This document shows positions 4,399 to 11,419 of a DNA stretch of 24,675 nt, piece by piece; within the stretch, counting starts at the first letter, position 1; every line of letters begins with the position of its first letter. Made by a program: the position numbers and the translations under genes. Under the pieces are notes generated by a model. That model saw nothing but the letters and a program-made list of their open reading frames with translations, ran no database searches and was not told where the DNA came from. The stretch is from a virus: IMG/VR virus record IMGVR_UViG_3300043395_004258, positions 1 through 24,675 of that record; one strand, written 5' to 3'.

Positions 4399-4406
4399 TA
4401 TTTATA
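4399..4406 (-). promoter_or_regulatory. Consensus T4 late promoter (TATAAATA)
   Basis: The minus strand reads TATAAATA exactly. It lies immediately after the terminator at 4406-4428 and 25 bases before the ATG at 4374. It is the clearest late promoter of the structural block. Confidence 0.85.
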
Positions 4407-5019: not shown

Positions 5020-6401
5020 CAGAATGTAAAACTCCTAAATTTACTTTTTAAATCAGATTGATGTTCTTCATGATTATACTCTGCTTCTTGTCCAGAGTCA
5101 AGTATGTCCTTTTGTGCAGATTGGTCCACATCATATAGACGCATCTTTGCACGATCAATTCCGATTACAAATTTTTTATGAATAGATTTATCGCTATATC
5201 TATTTTTCAATTGCTTAACTAAAATTTGATTCAACTGTTCGAGTTCATCAGTAGAAATTAAAGCAAAAAGAAAATCAGCAGTTGCTGGTAGACCAAAAGA
5301 TTCAGAAGTATCAGTTAATTCTGGATCCGAGGACGCAAAACCAGATCTGGTAGTTTGTGTCGCACTCATGATTGGAACATTATGTTCAACTGCCAATCCT
5401 CTCAATTCTTCAGCAATAGATTTCACATAAGAATAAGAATTTACGGAAATATTTCCCTTATATCTACTAGATGCACAAATATTCAAATAATCAATAAAAA
5501 TAACATCAGGCTTAAAAGATTTCTTGAGTGCCAATTCATTGAGAAGTGCCTTAAAATGACCTGCATGTGCTGAAGCGGTTGGATATTCTTTAATGATTAA
5601 AGTGCCTTGTGTTTTCTTAGATATAGTATTAATTTTTCCTTCAAAAACAGACTTTGGTAGATCTTTAATATCTTGGATATTAATGTTCATTTGATTAGCA
5701 TCAATTCGCTCAGCAATTTTTTCTTCTGCCATTTCCAACGTAATGTACAAAACGTTTTTTCCTTGGAGCAAGTAGGCGCCAGCCACATGGCACATGAATA
5801 AAGATTTGCCGACATTCGTACCAGCAAGAGCGATGTTAAGAGTTTTAGGAGAGAGACCACCGTTTGTGATTTTATTAAAATATTCAAGATCAAATTCAAG
5901 TTTATTCTCCTTTATATTGTAACTATCGTATCTTTGTTCATAATCTAAAAGGTAATCATGTCCAATATGATTATCAAAACTCACTGCTAATGCGTCTGAC
6001 AAAATAGATGGAATAGAATCCCTATTTTTGTTTTCGTCATGGCCATCAGCAATTTGAATGGATTCCATAAGAGCAAGATAAATTGCTCTATCTCTACACC
6101 ATTTTTCCGTAGTATCAATTAACCATTGAAGTTCTACTGGAATATGGTCAAATGAATCAACGATATTTAAAATTTCTTTATATGAAGTTTCATTTAAATC
6201 TGTTCTTTTTTCGATTTCAATCAACAAAGACTCCTTCGTTGCTGGAGTGTTATATTGAGTGATAAATGAATGAATTTCACTAAAAATAATCTTAAAACTG
6301 TAATCTTGAAAATACTCAGTTTTTAAAAATGGAAGTACTTTTCTAATATATTCTTCATTATACAAAAGGTTTCTAAGGATTAGAAACTCAACTTTCTCCA
6401 T
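5019..6401 (-). CDS. gp41: Replicative DNA helicase gp41 (DnaB family)
   Basis: 460 residues, close to T4 gp41 (475). This is the hexameric 5'-3' helicase that unwinds DNA ahead of the phage replisome and works with primase gp61 and loader gp59. The N-terminal about 150 residues form the helical domain. The RecA-like core has Walker A GTNVGKS (194-200), the catalytic Glu in TLEM (221-224), Walker B VIFIDYLN (300-307), ATQT (347-350) and LKNRYS (399-404). AAGGAA lies 8 bases before the ATG. The start overlaps the uvsX C-terminal gene by 14 bases. It therefore shares the transcript of the split uvsX locus and would also be reached by the late promoter of the endonuclease gene. Confidence 0.93.
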
Positions 6402-7596
6402 AACTAAATTCCTTGTGTGCGATTTCGTCCAACTGTTGCATTACTTCTTCGGTAAAGTATTTTTCTGGATTTTTTAAAATTTCTTTTGCATAAAGTTTCT
6501 TTCCTTCAATCTCATAGCGTCCTGCTACATTCTTCCAGAGTCCACCAAGTTCTCCAAGTTCAAGCAGACCATAATATCTATCAAGACCACGCTCATCATA
6601 ATACAAACGAACCTCAACGTCTTTATTTTCTTTACTCAAACGCGATTTAGCAGTCTTAGCCTTGATAATATTGCCGACCACTTCTGTTCCATCCTTTTCT
6701 TTCTTTTTGCTGAGATAAATAATCGTAGACGCTGCGTACTTGAGTCCGCTACCTCCACCCATTTCCTTAGTTGGTACGTAAGCTCCGATAACATCATAGG
6801 TGTGATTAGTAACGATCATTGGAATATTTGCCTGACCAAGTTTCAAGGTAAGCATACGGAATGCACCTTTAATCAGTTGTGATTTGGTCATATCACGAAC
6901 TTCTTTATCATTTAATGCATCATTAATCTCTTTACTTGTTGAAAGCATACCCAGAGAGTCTAGCACAAACATACAAGGATTGCGTTCCCCTTCAGGTTTT
7001 TTCATATAAAGGTCAACTGCCTTAAGTGCCTTTCCACGGAACTCTTCAACAGTCACTACATTTACTACAACAATACGAGTAGTGTCTAATCCACGCGACT
7101 CTAGAAGAGATTTAGTGATAGCAGCTTCAGTATCAAAATAGAGACAATAACCATCGGAATTATTATCCAGAAAATTCTTGACAACGGCGAGGCTGAAGAA
7201 AGTATTATGATGATAAATTCCAGATTTAGAATTTGAAATATACCAGTGAGGAGCATCTATAGAAATATCATATACACTTTCAATACCAACTGGAGTTTTT
7301 TCAACTACAACTTTTTTACCATAAGTAGAAGTAATTTCTCCGGCATCAACTGCTTTGATTTCTAATCCAGTATGATAATCTTGAAAGATATGATTTATAG
7401 AACATTCGAATTTATCTCCATCACTAAAATCTAAACTTATAACTTCATTATTGTGTTTGGTTACCACCTGATTAATTCTAGTTTTTCCTGTTGGTGTTCT
7501 AACATATATTTCGTCAGTGACTTCATATGGAACTTCGTGCTCACCTTTACCATAAAGTTTATAAAGTTGTTCGTATGTAAGTTCAAGTTCAACCAT
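6388..7596 (-). CDS. uvsX: UvsX recombinase C-terminal part preceded by C-intein
   Basis: 402 residues from ATG 7596, which has GAGGAA 7 bases upstream. The frame is also open from TTG 7602. Residues 1-131 are the C-intein: a block-B-like region ending in SINHIF, then blocks F and [14 protein letters not shown] and SGIYHHN, with penultimate His and terminal Asn. The first extein residue is Thr132. The rest is the RecA/UvsX core: YFDTEAA, Walker-B-like [15 protein letters not shown] and the loop region [12 protein letters not shown]. Joined to the 64-residue N-extein, the spliced protein would be about 335 residues with a restored GESSTGKT P-loop. UvsX coats single-stranded DNA and drives strand exchange. 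The start overlaps the endonuclease stop by 8 bases. Confidence 0.93.
7204..7596 (-). other. C-intein of split UvsX intein (about 131 residues)
   Basis: This segment encodes everything of the intein after block A: a block-B-like [13 protein letters not shown], block F ([13 protein letters not shown]) and block G (GIYHHN), immediately before extein Thr (7201-7203). No endonuclease domain is embedded. The junction falls exactly where the UvsX P-loop resumes. Confidence 0.9.
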
Positions 7597-8554
7597 TTTC
7601 AAATTCCTCTAAAATTTTTAGCGTTTTTTTTAAATTTTCATCATTATACTCAAAACATTCTGTAGTTTTAATTACAGTTGGAGCATATGAATTTTTAAAG
7701 TAGAGATGAAATTCATTTTCAAGTTTAACGGCATCAATTGATTTTATCCTTTTAAACAAAAATAAATTATAATTTAATGAAATACTCCATCTTTTTGAGA
7801 TGTTATTGTGTTTTGTCAATCCATATTTTACAATTCTATTACCATTATCTTCCAATACTATCATATAAAAGTTCAAGAAGTCAATGTTGGCAATTGTTTC
7901 TTCAGTATAATACCCAACATGAGAATTTAATTTTCTTTTAGTATTAATCTCCTCCAAATTTTTACCACTTTTATAGAAAGATTTAAACCATTTATCATTT
8001 TTCTCTTTCCACTTTTTCAATCCAATGTCTTCCCCATATTTTTTAACATAAAAATCAATTCCTCTTGATTGAGATTTGGATACAATTAATTTAGAATCTT
8101 CTTCAGTATAACCCTGTTTCATCCAATATTCAGGTCGTCTTATTGAACCTTCAATGTAAGTATTTTGGTTTCTATTTAATCTAATATTTTTTGAAGATTT
8201 TCCATTTTCTATTTTTTTATCCTTGAACTCTAAAAACTTTTTAGTTCCCAATTCTTCTCCATATTTTTCAATCCAATAATTTAGTGTTTGCAATTTCAAT
8301 TGGGAGGATTTCATATTTTGTTTTTGACTTTCAGTTCTTTTTGAACCTTTGTTAGATTTACCATTATTTTGAATTTCTTTAATTTTAATTAAAGATTCAT
8401 TTTCACTTAATCCAAGTTCAATCCAATACTCAATGCATCTTGGACTGCATTTTCGTCGTTGCAGTTTTGATTTTTCAAGTGCTTCATCTTCAGTAAACCC
8501 AAGAAGTATCCAGTATAAAGGTCTTCTTGGGTCATTTCTACCTTCTCCTCTCAT
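7589..8554 (-). CDS. Free-standing GIY-YIG-like homing endonuclease inside the split uvsX intein
   Basis: 321 residues. The C-terminal part (about 225-315) fits a GIY-YIG/T5orf172-type nuclease: FYMI (229-232) and KYGLT (243-247) stand for GIY and YIG, followed by Arg255 in SKRW and Glu in KLENEFH (279-281). The N-terminal 190 residues hold two kinds of repeat in the order A-A-B-A-B. Type A is YW-x3-G-[FLY]-[ST]-E-x-[ED] at about 11-32, 39-60 and 139-160. Type B is KYGE[ED][LI]G-x-KK at about 91-113 and 166-188. Such repeats are presumably DNA-binding. The gene lies exactly between the intein halves and has its own TATAAATA promoter. No Shine-Dalgarno precedes the ATG. The GIY-YIG call rests on pattern reading; the position makes a homing role very likely. 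Confidence 0.82.
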
Positions 8555-8598
8555 AGCAATTTAAAACTTTATATTATTTATACAATTGCAGGAGAAAG
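8541..8598 (-). promoter_or_regulatory. Hairpin hiding the endonuclease start codon, late promoter in its loop
   Basis: Arms 8584-8589 and 8556-8561 (GCAATT/AATTGC on the minus strand) pair over 6 bp. Flanking segments 8590-8596 and 8543-8549 (TTCTCCT/AGGAGAA) pair over 7 bp more, extendable by two pairs including a wobble. The 6-base bulge 8550-8555 contains the ATG at 8552-8554. The loop contains the TATAAATA promoter, so RNA started there lacks the upstream arm. Confidence 0.7.
8575..8582 (-). promoter_or_regulatory. Consensus late promoter (TATAAATA) of the homing endonuclease
   Basis: The minus strand reads TATAAATA exactly, 20 bases upstream of the endonuclease ATG at 8554, within the 57-base gap after the UvsX N-terminal stop. 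Confidence 0.85.
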
Positions 8599-8611
8599 AA
8601 CTACTAAAATA

Positions 8612-8887
8612 TTACAAATTACATAGTTTATTTTTTATCCTGTTGGCAGTTTCTTCATCACAATAAATTGTAATTTTTTCCGTTCCTCTAGCACATTTTC
8701 CAGTAGAAGACTCTCCAGCAATAGCAGTAATCTTATTCCCAGATACACCGCCAAATATGCTACCTGAAACCAATGCGTTAAAAATGTACGAACCTGTGTC
8801 AACATATCTTTCAGTTTCATCAATTTCTGAAGCAAGTTGTGTGTATTCTCCACCAATTTCTTTTACAATATCTTTAAGAAAGTCCAT
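8612..8887 (-). CDS. uvsX: UvsX recombinase N-terminal part followed by N-intein
   Basis: 91 residues. Residues 1-64 are the UvsX N-terminal region ending in the P-loop AGESSTGK. Residue 65 is Cys, followed by 26 residues of intein block A (CARGTEKITIYCDEE) and then a TAA stop. The N-intein is thus 27 residues, far shorter than the roughly 90-100 of ordinary split inteins. Trans-splicing with the C-intein at 7204-7596 would join GK to Thr and rebuild GESSTGKT. AGAGGT precedes the ATG. A promoter (TTGATT, 17 bases, extended TATACT) lies just upstream at 8909-8937. The partial protein alone would be inactive, since Walker A is cut in two. Confidence 0.92.
   Translation of the reverse strand: MDFLKDIVKEIGGEYTQLASEIDETERYVDTGSYIFNALVSGSIFGGVSGNKITAIAGESSTGKCARGTEKITIYCDEETANRIKNKLCNL
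8615..8695 (-). other. N-intein of split UvsX intein (27 residues)
   Basis: It begins with the nucleophile Cys (8693-8695) directly after the Lys of the P-loop and stops after KNKLCNL. It contains block A only. Block B is on the C-intein, so the break lies between blocks A and B. Confidence 0.88.
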
Positions 8888-8908
8888 AAATTACCTCTAA
8901 GTAAATCC

Positions 8909-8937
8909 AGTATAGCATCAAATAAAAAATGAATCAA
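8909..8937 (-). promoter_or_regulatory. Sigma70-like promoter of uvsX, extended -10
   Basis: Minus strand: -35 TTGATT (8932-8937), 17-base spacer, -10 TATACT (8909-8914) preceded by TGC. It overlaps the end of gp43 and lies 22 bases before the uvsX ATG. Confidence 0.65.
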
Positions 8938-11419
8938 GGGTTGTTTTTTTCTCTGTATTCCAACCAATAATATCTAAAATTGCTTTAAGTGGTTTAATGA
9001 AAGTTTTTTCGAATTGCATATCATAATCAACATATTTTTGTAAGTTAAACTCTGATGGTAATTTTTGTATAAAAGAAATGACATTTTCTTGAATTGGATT
9101 GGGTAATTTTAAATAGCAATATTTAATTTTTTCTCCATTTTTAATAATGGAATATTTTTTATCCAATTTTTTATCTTTAATGTAATAATTATAAAGTATT
9201 GACCCTCTTACGTGGATTGGTGTGGATTTAGCATACATTGTACTATTAGACTTGAATTTTGTAATTTCATTTACTGATTTAGGAAAAGAAACCTCTTCTG
9301 GGGTCAATTCAAAAAATTCTTTTCTAGTAATATCAATAAATTTTATTACTTCATCTTCTGTTGATGTCATAATTAACTTGATTGCCTTTTTAATTCTATC
9401 TCGACAAAAAGCTGGCGTAGAAGATCTGATTGCTTCAATTCCAGTCATTGAAAGTTCAGGCTCAGAATACCGAATGCCCTCATTGTCCCAAACATTTGCA
9501 ATATATCTTTTTTTAGAAATAAATACAGCACGATCTGTAATTTTTTCTCGTTTCATGTGCAATCGATGTGCGTATGCATTCAAGTAATCCGCCAATTCTT
9601 TATAAGAATTATCTACATATTCTTGAATCTTAGTAGAAAAAATTTTATCTAAAAAATCTATTATTTCTAATTTTGTTGGTGTTTTATTTTGATAGATCTT
9701 ATCTACTAATGGTTTCATATTCAAAAATGCAGAGTCGGTGTCACAATAAACAACATAATCAATATTTTCAGTATTCAATATCTTATTAAAATACAGATTA
9801 AACTTCATTTCAATCCAACGAATTGCTAATTGTCCAGTATAAGTAACTGCTTCGGCATTCCTAAGATCATAAAATCTAAAATATGGATTTCCTGTTGCGC
9901 CATAACAAGAATTCAAACACACCTTAATAGATTGTTCTTTTACACTATACATTGAAATTAGTTTCTTAATATTAGAATCATGAGTTTTTTCATAATCTTT
10001 CTTAAGATCTTTCATTTTGTCTTTGTATAACTTTCTTTTCTGAAACATCTTATCGAGAAGTTCGGGGAGAAATCCCATTCTATCTTTTTTATACATAGAC
10101 CCATTTGGGCAAACCGAATATCTAAAATCATCAGGAATCTTTACAGATTTTTTTAATATAGAATCAATAGATATGTTTGGGAACCTATCCTGAACTAAAG
10201 TATCTGGACTAATATTGAGTCCCATCATAATATGCGGATATAGAGAAGTCAAGTCCATACTAACAACATAGTCGTATGACCCTGGAATTGGCTCTTTAAC
10301 AAAAGCACCAACAAACTTATCAGATTTTTCTTTTGCTGCCTCTTTAAGTGGAATTACAACATGTTTACGACGAAGATAGTTATAAATGATGGTATCCCAC
10401 ATTCTTACTTGATAAAAAACATCTTCAAAATTTGTTTTAGAGTCAAATGCAAGCATGATTGCCAATTCAATCATATGAAGTTTATCTTCTAATTTATTAA
10501 CAAGTTCGGTATCTATTACATTATATTCTACAAATGTGTCCCAATCACTATCATAAAAGTCTTTAAATGTTTCGTATTCACTATGATCTAGTTTATTTTG
10601 TCCTAGTTCATTGAATGTAATAGTATCTAATCTATAATTTTCTGGTTTCTTAAATGAATATTTTTTGTAGAGATCAAAATAATCAATAATAGCTACACCA
10701 AAAATATCATATACAGTTTGCTGTTCTCCTATCCTAACTTCAACTTGTTTATCCGAAATCCAATTATATGGAGATAATTTTCTTGTTTCTTTTTCTCCAA
10801 TTATCCTATACATTCTACCAATAATATATGGAAAATCATAGTATAAACAATTCCATCCAGTAACTATTTCAGGAGTATTATTTCTCCAGAATTCCAAGAA
10901 AGAAAAAATCAAATTAGTTTCGTTTTTACAATAAAAATATTTGTGATTGTTTAATTTTTTATTAAATGGTCTAGTTCCCCAAGTATATATTTTTTTAGAT
11001 ATATAATCCTGAATTGTAATTAATAGAATTTCCTCGTCACACGTTTTTGGATCTGGGAACCCATTCTCTGAAGAAACTTCGATGTCTATCGCTACAATTG
11101 ACATCTTAGTTATATCGTATTCTATATACTCTTCTGGATAGTTATCAGAAATGTATTGATATATTGGCGTTTCATTTCCATATATTTCAAACCCTTCTAC
11201 TTCTTTATATTTGTCAATAAACTGCTTTGACTCTTTAATTGTTCCGGGTTGAATAGATTTAACGTATTTGCCATCTAGTGTTTTATATTCAGTTTTTTTG
11301 TCTGACATGACATAAAAAGTTGGTCTATAATCAACTATGTCTGTGAATCTTTCTCCATTTTCATATCCTCGAACATAAATTTTATTTCCGAGCTGTTTTA
11401 CACTAGTATACCAACGCAT
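8918..11419 (-). CDS. gp43: DNA polymerase gp43 (family B)
   Basis: 833 residues, slightly shorter than T4 gp43 (898). This is the replicative polymerase with 3'-5' proofreading. Exonuclease motifs are DIEVS (112-116), GWNCLYYDFPYI (188-199) and YNVIDTE (299-305). Polymerase motif A is MDLTSLYPHIM (388-398), motif B is the KVCLNSCYGATGNP region (499-512) and motif C is YCDTDS (558-563). The C-terminus TTLDSFFI is a sliding-clamp binding peptide of PIP-box type, expected to dock on gp45. No intein or frameshift interrupts it. The ATG shares its A with the stop of the upstream 98-residue gene (TAATG), indicating translational coupling. The promoter at 11739-11767 serves both. Confidence 0.95.
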   Translation of the reverse strand: MRWYTSVKQLGNKIYVRGYENGERFTDIVDYRPTFYVMSDKKTEYKTLDGKYVKSIQPGTIKESKQFIDKYKEVEGFEIYGNETPIYQYISDNYPEEYIEYDITKMSIVAIDIEVSSENGFPDPKTCDEEILLITIQDYISKKIYTWGTRPFNKKLNNHKYFYCKNETNLIFSFLEFWRNNTPEIVTGWNCLYYDFPYIIGRMYRIIGEKETRKLSPYNWISDKQVEVRIGEQQTVYDIFGVAIIDYFDLYKKYSFKKPENYRLDTITFNELGQNKLDHSEYETFKDFYDSDWDTFVEYNVIDTELVNKLEDKLHMIELAIMLAFDSKTNFEDVFYQVRMWDTIIYNYLRRKHVVIPLKEAAKEKSDKFVGAFVKEPIPGSYDYVVSMDLTSLYPHIMMGLNISPDTLVQDRFPNISIDSILKKSVKIPDDFRYSVCPNGSMYKKDRMGFLPELLDKMFQKRKLYKDKMKDLKKDYEKTHDSNIKKLISMYSVKEQSIKVCLNSCYGATGNPYFRFYDLRNAEAVTYTGQLAIRWIEMKFNLYFNKILNTENIDYVVYCDTDSAFLNMKPLVDKIYQNKTPTKLEIIDFLDKIFSTKIQEYVDNSYKELADYLNAYAHRLHMKREKITDRAVFISKKRYIANVWDNEGIRYSEPELSMTGIEAIRSSTPAFCRDRIKKAIKLIMTSTEDEVIKFIDITRKEFFELTPEEVSFPKSVNEITKFKSNSTMYAKSTPIHVRGSILYNYYIKDKKLDKKYSIIKNGEKIKYCYLKLPNPIQENVISFIQKLPSEFNLQKYVDYDMQFEKTFIKPLKAILDIIGWNTEKKTTLDSFFI

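What the first reader, a model, noticed from the sequence alone, without database searches (positions are those of the whole stretch)
6388..8917. UvsX recombinase split inside its P-loop by an atypical split intein with a 27-residue N-intein
The N-terminal gene ends in GESSTGK then Cys plus 26 intein residues. About 1 kb further on, a second gene begins with the rest of an intein (block-B-like, F and G, ending HHN) and resumes with Thr and the UvsX core. Joining the exteins rebuilds GESSTGKT exactly. The break between blocks A and B gives an unusually short N-intein. Split inteins with a free-standing endonuclease between the halves are known from phage metagenomes ('fractured genes'), and short-N split inteins such as AceL-TerL are rare. 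This combination in uvsX makes phage recombination depend on protein trans-splicing.
Basis: partly seen in the sequence, partly recalled or inferred. Interest (0 to 1): 0.92.

Follow-up and report, generated by a model that had tools for sequence, protein, structure and literature searches.

The report
Phage recombinase gene split by intein
A T4-like cyanophage carries its DNA-recombination protein UvsX as two separate genes, each ending or starting in one half of a self-splicing element (a split intein) that should rejoin the halves exactly inside the ATP-binding site; this is a well-supported new member of a known type of mobile element, not a new principle.

Summary
On the minus strand, gene 1 (8887-8612) encodes UvsX residues 1-64 plus a 27-residue N-intein; an endonuclease-like gene follows (8554-7589); gene 2 (7596-6388) encodes a 131-residue C-intein ending HHN, then Thr and the UvsX core. 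Joining the exteins gives a gap-free 335-residue UvsX, 92% identical to the intact UvsX of isolate DSL-LC02. Intact neighbours show the exact empty site. A contiguous relative of the intein folds confidently (pLDDT 95) as an intein. Catalytic residues are invariant in 14 aligned C-inteins; dN/dS is 0.1-0.2. Relatives in IMG/VR form an allelic series: split with endonuclease, with broken endonuclease, without it, and contiguous. The window's UvsX nests among intein-less alleles while its intein matches inteins in distant UvsX genes, so the element moved. Atypical split inteins (15-37 residue N-inteins) and 'fractured genes' are known; I found no paper on a UvsX one. The endonuclease is probably GIY-YIG-like (weak evidence). 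Splicing itself is untested. Verdict: new member of a known kind. The most striking by-products are UvsX in three pieces and 14-residue N-inteins in relatives.

The parts
8696..8887 (-). N-extein: UvsX residues 1-64, ends in Walker A GESSTGK
   Evidence: PHROG 97 UvsX, E 8.9e-17; 92-95% identical to cyanophage UvsX
8615..8695 (-). N-intein, 27 aa CARGTEKITIYCDEETANRIKNKLCNL (Cys1, block A, extra helix); stop 8614-8612
   Evidence: homologous 24-28 aa N-inteins in related contigs
8575..8582 (-). TATAAATA, match to the T4 late-promoter consensus, upstream of the endonuclease gene; present also in L082, L086, L087
   Evidence: only 2 copies in the window, but 2 or more are expected by chance, so suggestive only
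7589..8554 (-). free-standing endonuclease-like gene, 321 aa: N-terminal YW..GY..EA modules, C-terminal domain (about 7592-7912) with weak GIY-YIG-type (MUG113/T5orf172) match
   Evidence: dN/dS 0.16-0.33; full-length relatives found only at this uvsX site
7605..7610 (-). ribosome-binding site AGAGGA of the C-gene, inside the end of the endonuclease gene, conserved in relatives
7204..7596 (-). C-intein, 131 aa, ATG at 7596; block B SINH, block F, block G ending HHN
   Evidence: (Pfam Intein_splicing matched by 14 of 14 members, best E 2.5e-8)
6391..7203 (-). C-extein: UvsX residues 65-335, starts with Thr (+1) of Walker A; stop 6390-6388
   Evidence: RecA E 2.7e-11; UvsX E 1.8e-76

Best explanation
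This is a mobile, class-1-type, atypically split intein inserted between Lys64 and Thr65 of the Walker A motif of uvsX in a T4-like cyanophage (Kyanoviridae-like) genome. The two halves are translated separately (each gene has its own ribosome-binding site), associate, and trans-splice. Cys1 forms the thioester, Thr+1 takes over the N-extein, the terminal Asn cyclises, and a seamless 335-residue UvsX results. The gene between the halves is most likely a homing endonuclease that spreads the whole 1492-bp unit into intein-less uvsX alleles, with repair by phage recombination (which itself uses UvsX). Shown: anatomy, exact junctions, conserved catalytic residues, purifying selection, intein fold of a contiguous relative, horizontal acquisition. 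Inferred: splicing, endonuclease activity, homing.
For: Exact rebuilding of a 335-aa UvsX without gaps. Empty sites in close relatives at the DNA level. Syntenic pol-uvsX-gp41 position. Invariant block-B His, block F/G residues and HHN in 14 aligned C-inteins. IntC dN/dS 0.10-0.21, endonuclease 0.16-0.33. AlphaFold model of the contiguous relative L094: pLDDT 95.1, best PDB matches all inteins, Z 18.5 to Npu DnaE and 16.9 to VidaL. Window extein nested in intein-less alleles (95% identical to L079), while its C-intein is 84% identical to that of L084, whose C-extein is only 67% identical; silent-site difference 0.39 in the intein against 0.75 in the extein. Endonuclease relatives found only at this site. 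No RNA intron signal.
Against: No splicing or cleavage data. The endonuclease class rests on sub-threshold Pfam hits and conserved Y..KYGLT..R..E residues; its model (pLDDT 72, pTM 0.40) found no solved relative. The window record is a fragment, so an intact second uvsX elsewhere is not excluded, although the complete 168-kb relative DSL-LC02 and a 91-kb relative each have one RecA-family gene.
Confidence: 0.9

Rival explanations
1. The two halves assemble non-covalently into a working UvsX without splicing, as the split NrdA of phage Aeh1 does after mobE insertion.
For: Genes-in-pieces enzymes that work without splicing are documented in T4-like phages (PMC2988022).
Against: The break lies inside the Walker A loop, and both flanks carry conserved intein halves with every catalytic residue kept under purifying selection; non-splicing halves would have no reason to keep them.
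Confidence: 0.04
2. A decaying, non-functional insertion: the phage lost UvsX function and the pieces are relics, or the contig is a chimera.
For: L091 and L085 show broken endonucleases, so decay of that part does occur.
Against: Exteins and intein halves keep open frames and low dN/dS in all relatives; the same arrangement recurs in many independent contigs.
Confidence: 0.03
3. The interruption is removed at RNA level by a group I or II intron.
For: Endonuclease genes in T4-like phages often sit in introns (PMC2988022).
Against: No Rfam match in 6300-9000 at E<=1; intein motifs are in frame at both junctions.
Confidence: 0.01
4. The split is adaptive, a brake or timer on recombination (both halves must accumulate; endonuclease under late control), rather than a tolerated selfish insertion. 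This can hold together with the best explanation.
For: A TATAAATA late-promoter-like site before the endonuclease in the window, L082, L086 and L087, and a window hairpin over its start. L093 keeps the split without an endonuclease.
Against: The hairpin is not significant (z -1.6, +0.3, -1.3, -2.0 in four relatives), its pairs are not kept in relatives, and TATAAATA is no more frequent than chance predicts; patchy distribution among intein-less relatives fits a mobile element.
Confidence: 0.1

Closest known systems
AceL-TerL / GOS-TerL atypical split inteins (25 and 37 aa N-inteins)
   Same: Natural split inteins with a short N-intein and long C-intein
   Different: Host gene terminase; split after the first helix (S2 site, PMC13014065). 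Here the host is uvsX and the break lies before that helix, after an added helix. Campylobacter phage TerL inteins match our C-intein at only 27-28%
VidaL (16 aa N-intein) and PolB16 OarG (15 aa)
   Same: Split after the second strand (S1-like), as here; VidaL is among the closest solved folds (20-21% identity) and a weak profile match
   Different: Low sequence identity; our N-intein has 27 aa; PolB16 uses Ser1/Ser+1, ours Cys1/Thr+1
Fractured genes of Dassa et al. 2009 (split inteins with a free-standing endonuclease between halves)
   Same: Gene order N-half, endonuclease, C-half
   Different: Paper not held here, so compared from knowledge only; its endonucleases are recalled as Vsr-like (EDxHD), ours looks GIY-YIG-like with YW..GY modules
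gp41 helicase split intein of Vibrio phage vB_VmeM-32 (KU160494)
   Same: 26-aa N-intein, endonuclease gene, then C-intein ending HHN|T before the helicase core; C-intein 36-37% identical
   Different: Other host gene; its endonuclease has a different C-terminal domain (28% identity overall)
SegA of phage T4 (GIY-YIG endonuclease that cuts uvsX)
   Same: A free-standing endonuclease that targets uvsX (PMC2988022)
   Different: SegA sits beside uvsX and brings no intein

Membership tests
Split intein (class 1) | Nucleophilic residue 1 and block A directly after the N-extein | tested here: met
   Cys1, CARG[ST]EKI or close variants in all N-inteins seen of the close family
Split intein (class 1) | Block B [TS]xxH, block F, terminal His-Asn, Cys/Ser/Thr at +1 | tested here: met
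   His67, H115, H128, N129 invariant over 14 rows, Thr+1
Split intein (class 1) | Hint/intein fold | tested here: met
   L094 contiguous relative, pLDDT 95.1, Z 18.5 to 4kl5; the joined window halves were not folded (tool rule: only sequences as encoded)
Split intein (class 1) | Halves encoded by separate genes | tested here: met
   Two ORFs with stops and own ribosome-binding sites
Split intein (class 1) | Trans-splicing activity | not testable with these tools
   needs bench work
Atypical (short-N) split intein | N-intein of roughly 15-37 aa | tested here: met
   27 aa here, 24-28 aa in close relatives; range from PMC13014065, PMC11766414
Fractured-gene arrangement | Endonuclease gene between the two halves | tested here: met
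   ORF 8554-7589; same in L082-L084, L086, L090, L101, L124; nuclease activity itself untested
Fractured-gene arrangement | Vsr-like (EDxHD) endonuclease family of the original report | tested here: inconclusive
   C-terminal domain gives MUG113/T5orf172 hits instead, not above cut-off for the window protein
GIY-YIG endonuclease | GIY-YIG-type domain above curated cut-off | tested here: inconclusive
   MUG113 E 0.001 in 5 of 8, T5orf172 E 0.006 in 2 of 8; window protein 20.0 bits against cut-off 22.3; structure search found no relative

The most novel reading that the evidence does not exclude
UvsX P-loop inteins of T4-like phages are a full allelic series (contiguous, split by an endonuclease gene, endonuclease broken, endonuclease lost) in which capture of an endonuclease gene near the N-terminus is what splits an intein, and in which assembly of the recombinase from two or even three polypeptides acts as a control on phage recombination, including on the element's own homing.
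Probability: 0.15. Interest if true: 0.75.

Novelty: new member of a known kind. Interest (0 to 1): 0.5.

Why it matters
It puts an atypical split intein and its putative mobility gene into the phage recombinase, the enzyme on which homing in T4-like phages depends (PMC2988022), and supplies a candidate short-N split intein with Cys1/Thr+1 of possible use for protein ligation. The allelic series lets one test how a contiguous intein becomes split and whether a split survives after the endonuclease is lost (L093).

Tried and rejected
Paper searches for a UvsX split intein found none, but the library lacks key papers (Dassa 2009 and Burton 2020 not held), so prior description is not excluded. 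The late-promoter and hairpin idea for the endonuclease is not supported beyond suggestion. Phylogeny of the C-intein is too poorly resolved to say whether contiguous L088 is ancestral or re-fused. Foldseek and VIA found no relative for the endonuclease model; a PDB profile search found none either. No relative of the intein in 84,980 prokaryote genomes. S-B68, which matched beyond the P-loop, is an ordinary intact uvsX. The N-intein alone found nothing in phages.

Full report
What is there. All three genes lie on the minus strand between the DNA polymerase gene (11419-8918) and the gp41-like helicase gene (6401-5019), the place of uvsX in the intact relative DSL-LC02. Gene 1 (8887-8612, 91 aa) is UvsX 1-64 followed by CARGTEKITIYCDEETANRIKNKLCNL. 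Gene 2 (ATG 7596 to 6388, 402 aa) is a 131-aa C-intein followed by UvsX 65-335. Between them an ORF of 321 aa (8554-7589) ends inside the start of gene 2.

Is it real. The spliced product predicted from the two genes is 335 aa and aligns end to end, without gaps, to the intact 335-aa UvsX of Synechococcus phage DSL-LC02 with 307 identities. At DNA level, intein-less neighbours L079, L004 and L100 read GGAAAG|ACTTTC where the window has GGAAAA|1492 bp|ACTTTC. Both genes have their own ribosome-binding sites, AGAGGT and AGAGGA; that of gene 2 is conserved at the end of the endonuclease gene in relatives, and kept in L085, where most of the endonuclease gene is deleted.

Relatives. A search of IMG/VR with the C-intein gave 15 loci at first; L101 and L102 followed, and a block-F pattern search added L124, L128/L134 and L135. 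All of these are in uvsX, at the P-loop. The states are: split with intact endonuclease (window, L082, L083, L084, L086, L087, L090, L101, L124; L092 cut by the contig end), split with frameshifted or mostly deleted endonuclease (L091, L085), split without endonuclease (L093), contiguous (L088/L089, L094/L095, L102). Outside uvsX the same intein type was met, at 28-37% identity, in gp41 of Vibrio phage vB_VmeM-32 (26-aa N-intein, endonuclease between), in a clamp-loader-like gene of LR756508 (contiguous) and in a helicase gene (L103/L104). No match was found in prokaryote genomes.

Function kept. In 14 aligned C-inteins the block-B His, the block-F Asp/His and the terminal HHN are invariant. 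dN/dS against the window is 0.10-0.21 for the C-intein (0.22 for the most distant, L102) and, over all pairs, 0.16-0.33 for the endonuclease. The 160-aa contiguous intein of L094, modelled with all halves in the alignment, folds with pLDDT 95.1; its best PDB matches are all inteins (Z 18.5 Npu DnaE, 16.9 VidaL). Mapped on that model, the window's break falls in the loop after an extra helix (L094 residues 14-24) and before the strand/helix ELTYEQLY (33-45), that is, close to the S1 split site of VidaL and PolB16 rather than the S2 site of AceL-TerL (site definitions from PMC13014065).

Mobility. In a tree of 89 UvsX proteins the window sits inside a supported group otherwise made of intein-less alleles, its nearest being L079 at 95% identity (the intein-less set was picked for closeness to the window, so the count of gains is not an estimate of rates). 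Its C-intein is nevertheless 84% identical to that of L084, whose C-extein is only 67% identical; silent differences are 0.39 in the intein and 0.75 (saturated) in the extein. The intein thus moved between lineages.

Endonuclease. The N-terminal two thirds are repeats of the type [10 protein letters not shown] and [11 protein letters not shown], shared in part with the endonuclease-like protein of the VmeM-32 gp41 intein (28% identity). The C-terminal domain keeps LNFY.I.L..KYGLT..I.KRW...LEN.FH in 8 of 8 relatives and gives weak hits to MUG113 (5 of 8) and T5orf172 (2 of 8), both placed in the GIY-YIG clan to my knowledge. I take a GIY-YIG-type homing endonuclease as most likely (about 0.7), unproven. 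Full-length relatives occur only at this site in the collections searched.

Novelty. Natural atypical split inteins with N-halves of 15-37 aa are published (PMC10189870, PMC13014065, PMC11766414), and split inteins with endonuclease genes between the halves are known (Dassa 2009, cited in PMC3653736 and PMC6892783; the latter reports one in a jumbo-phage polymerase). I found no paper on a UvsX example, but the library is partial. I therefore file it as a new member of a known kind.

Noticed in passing
L085 1845-4645, L091 2714-6241, L096 793-2507: UvsX encoded in three pieces: the P-loop atypical split intein plus a second split intein with a normal long N-half further down (GG|S site in L085, a GG site also in L096, VIG|S site in L091), so two trans-splicing events would be needed; L085 has an HNH-like gene in the second gap.
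   Followed up: partly
L135 2386-4026; L128 and L134 (reverse strand): Distant UvsX P-loop split inteins whose N-intein is only 14 aa (CLGPDTKFVYYTEE, CFHPDTEIEVYTIE), one less than PolB16, called the shortest characterised in 2023; seen in two lineages, one of them in two nearly identical contigs.
   Followed up: partly
L099 2041-5116 (KU160494): Isolated Vibrio phage vB_VmeM-32 has an unannotated atypical split intein in its gp41-like helicase (26-aa N-intein, endonuclease between) and a split intein in its RecA-like gene.
   Followed up: partly
L103/L104: A UvsW-like helicase gene carries an intein of the same broad type, with the two halves in overlapping reading frames.
   Followed up: no
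window 20411-18758 (-): The gp46-like recombination nuclease is in two overlapping frames (20411-19707 and 19726-18758): a frameshift, either sequencing error or real.
   Followed up: partly
window 4399-4406 (-): The only other TATAAATA in the window lies before gene 4374-3745, just after a GC-rich hairpin with a T run, as a late promoter would.
   Followed up: no
L088 3950-4387: Contiguous mini-intein lacks the extra helix, and CTG stands where the split relatives have the ATG of the C-gene, which would fit re-fusion of a split gene.
   Followed up: partly
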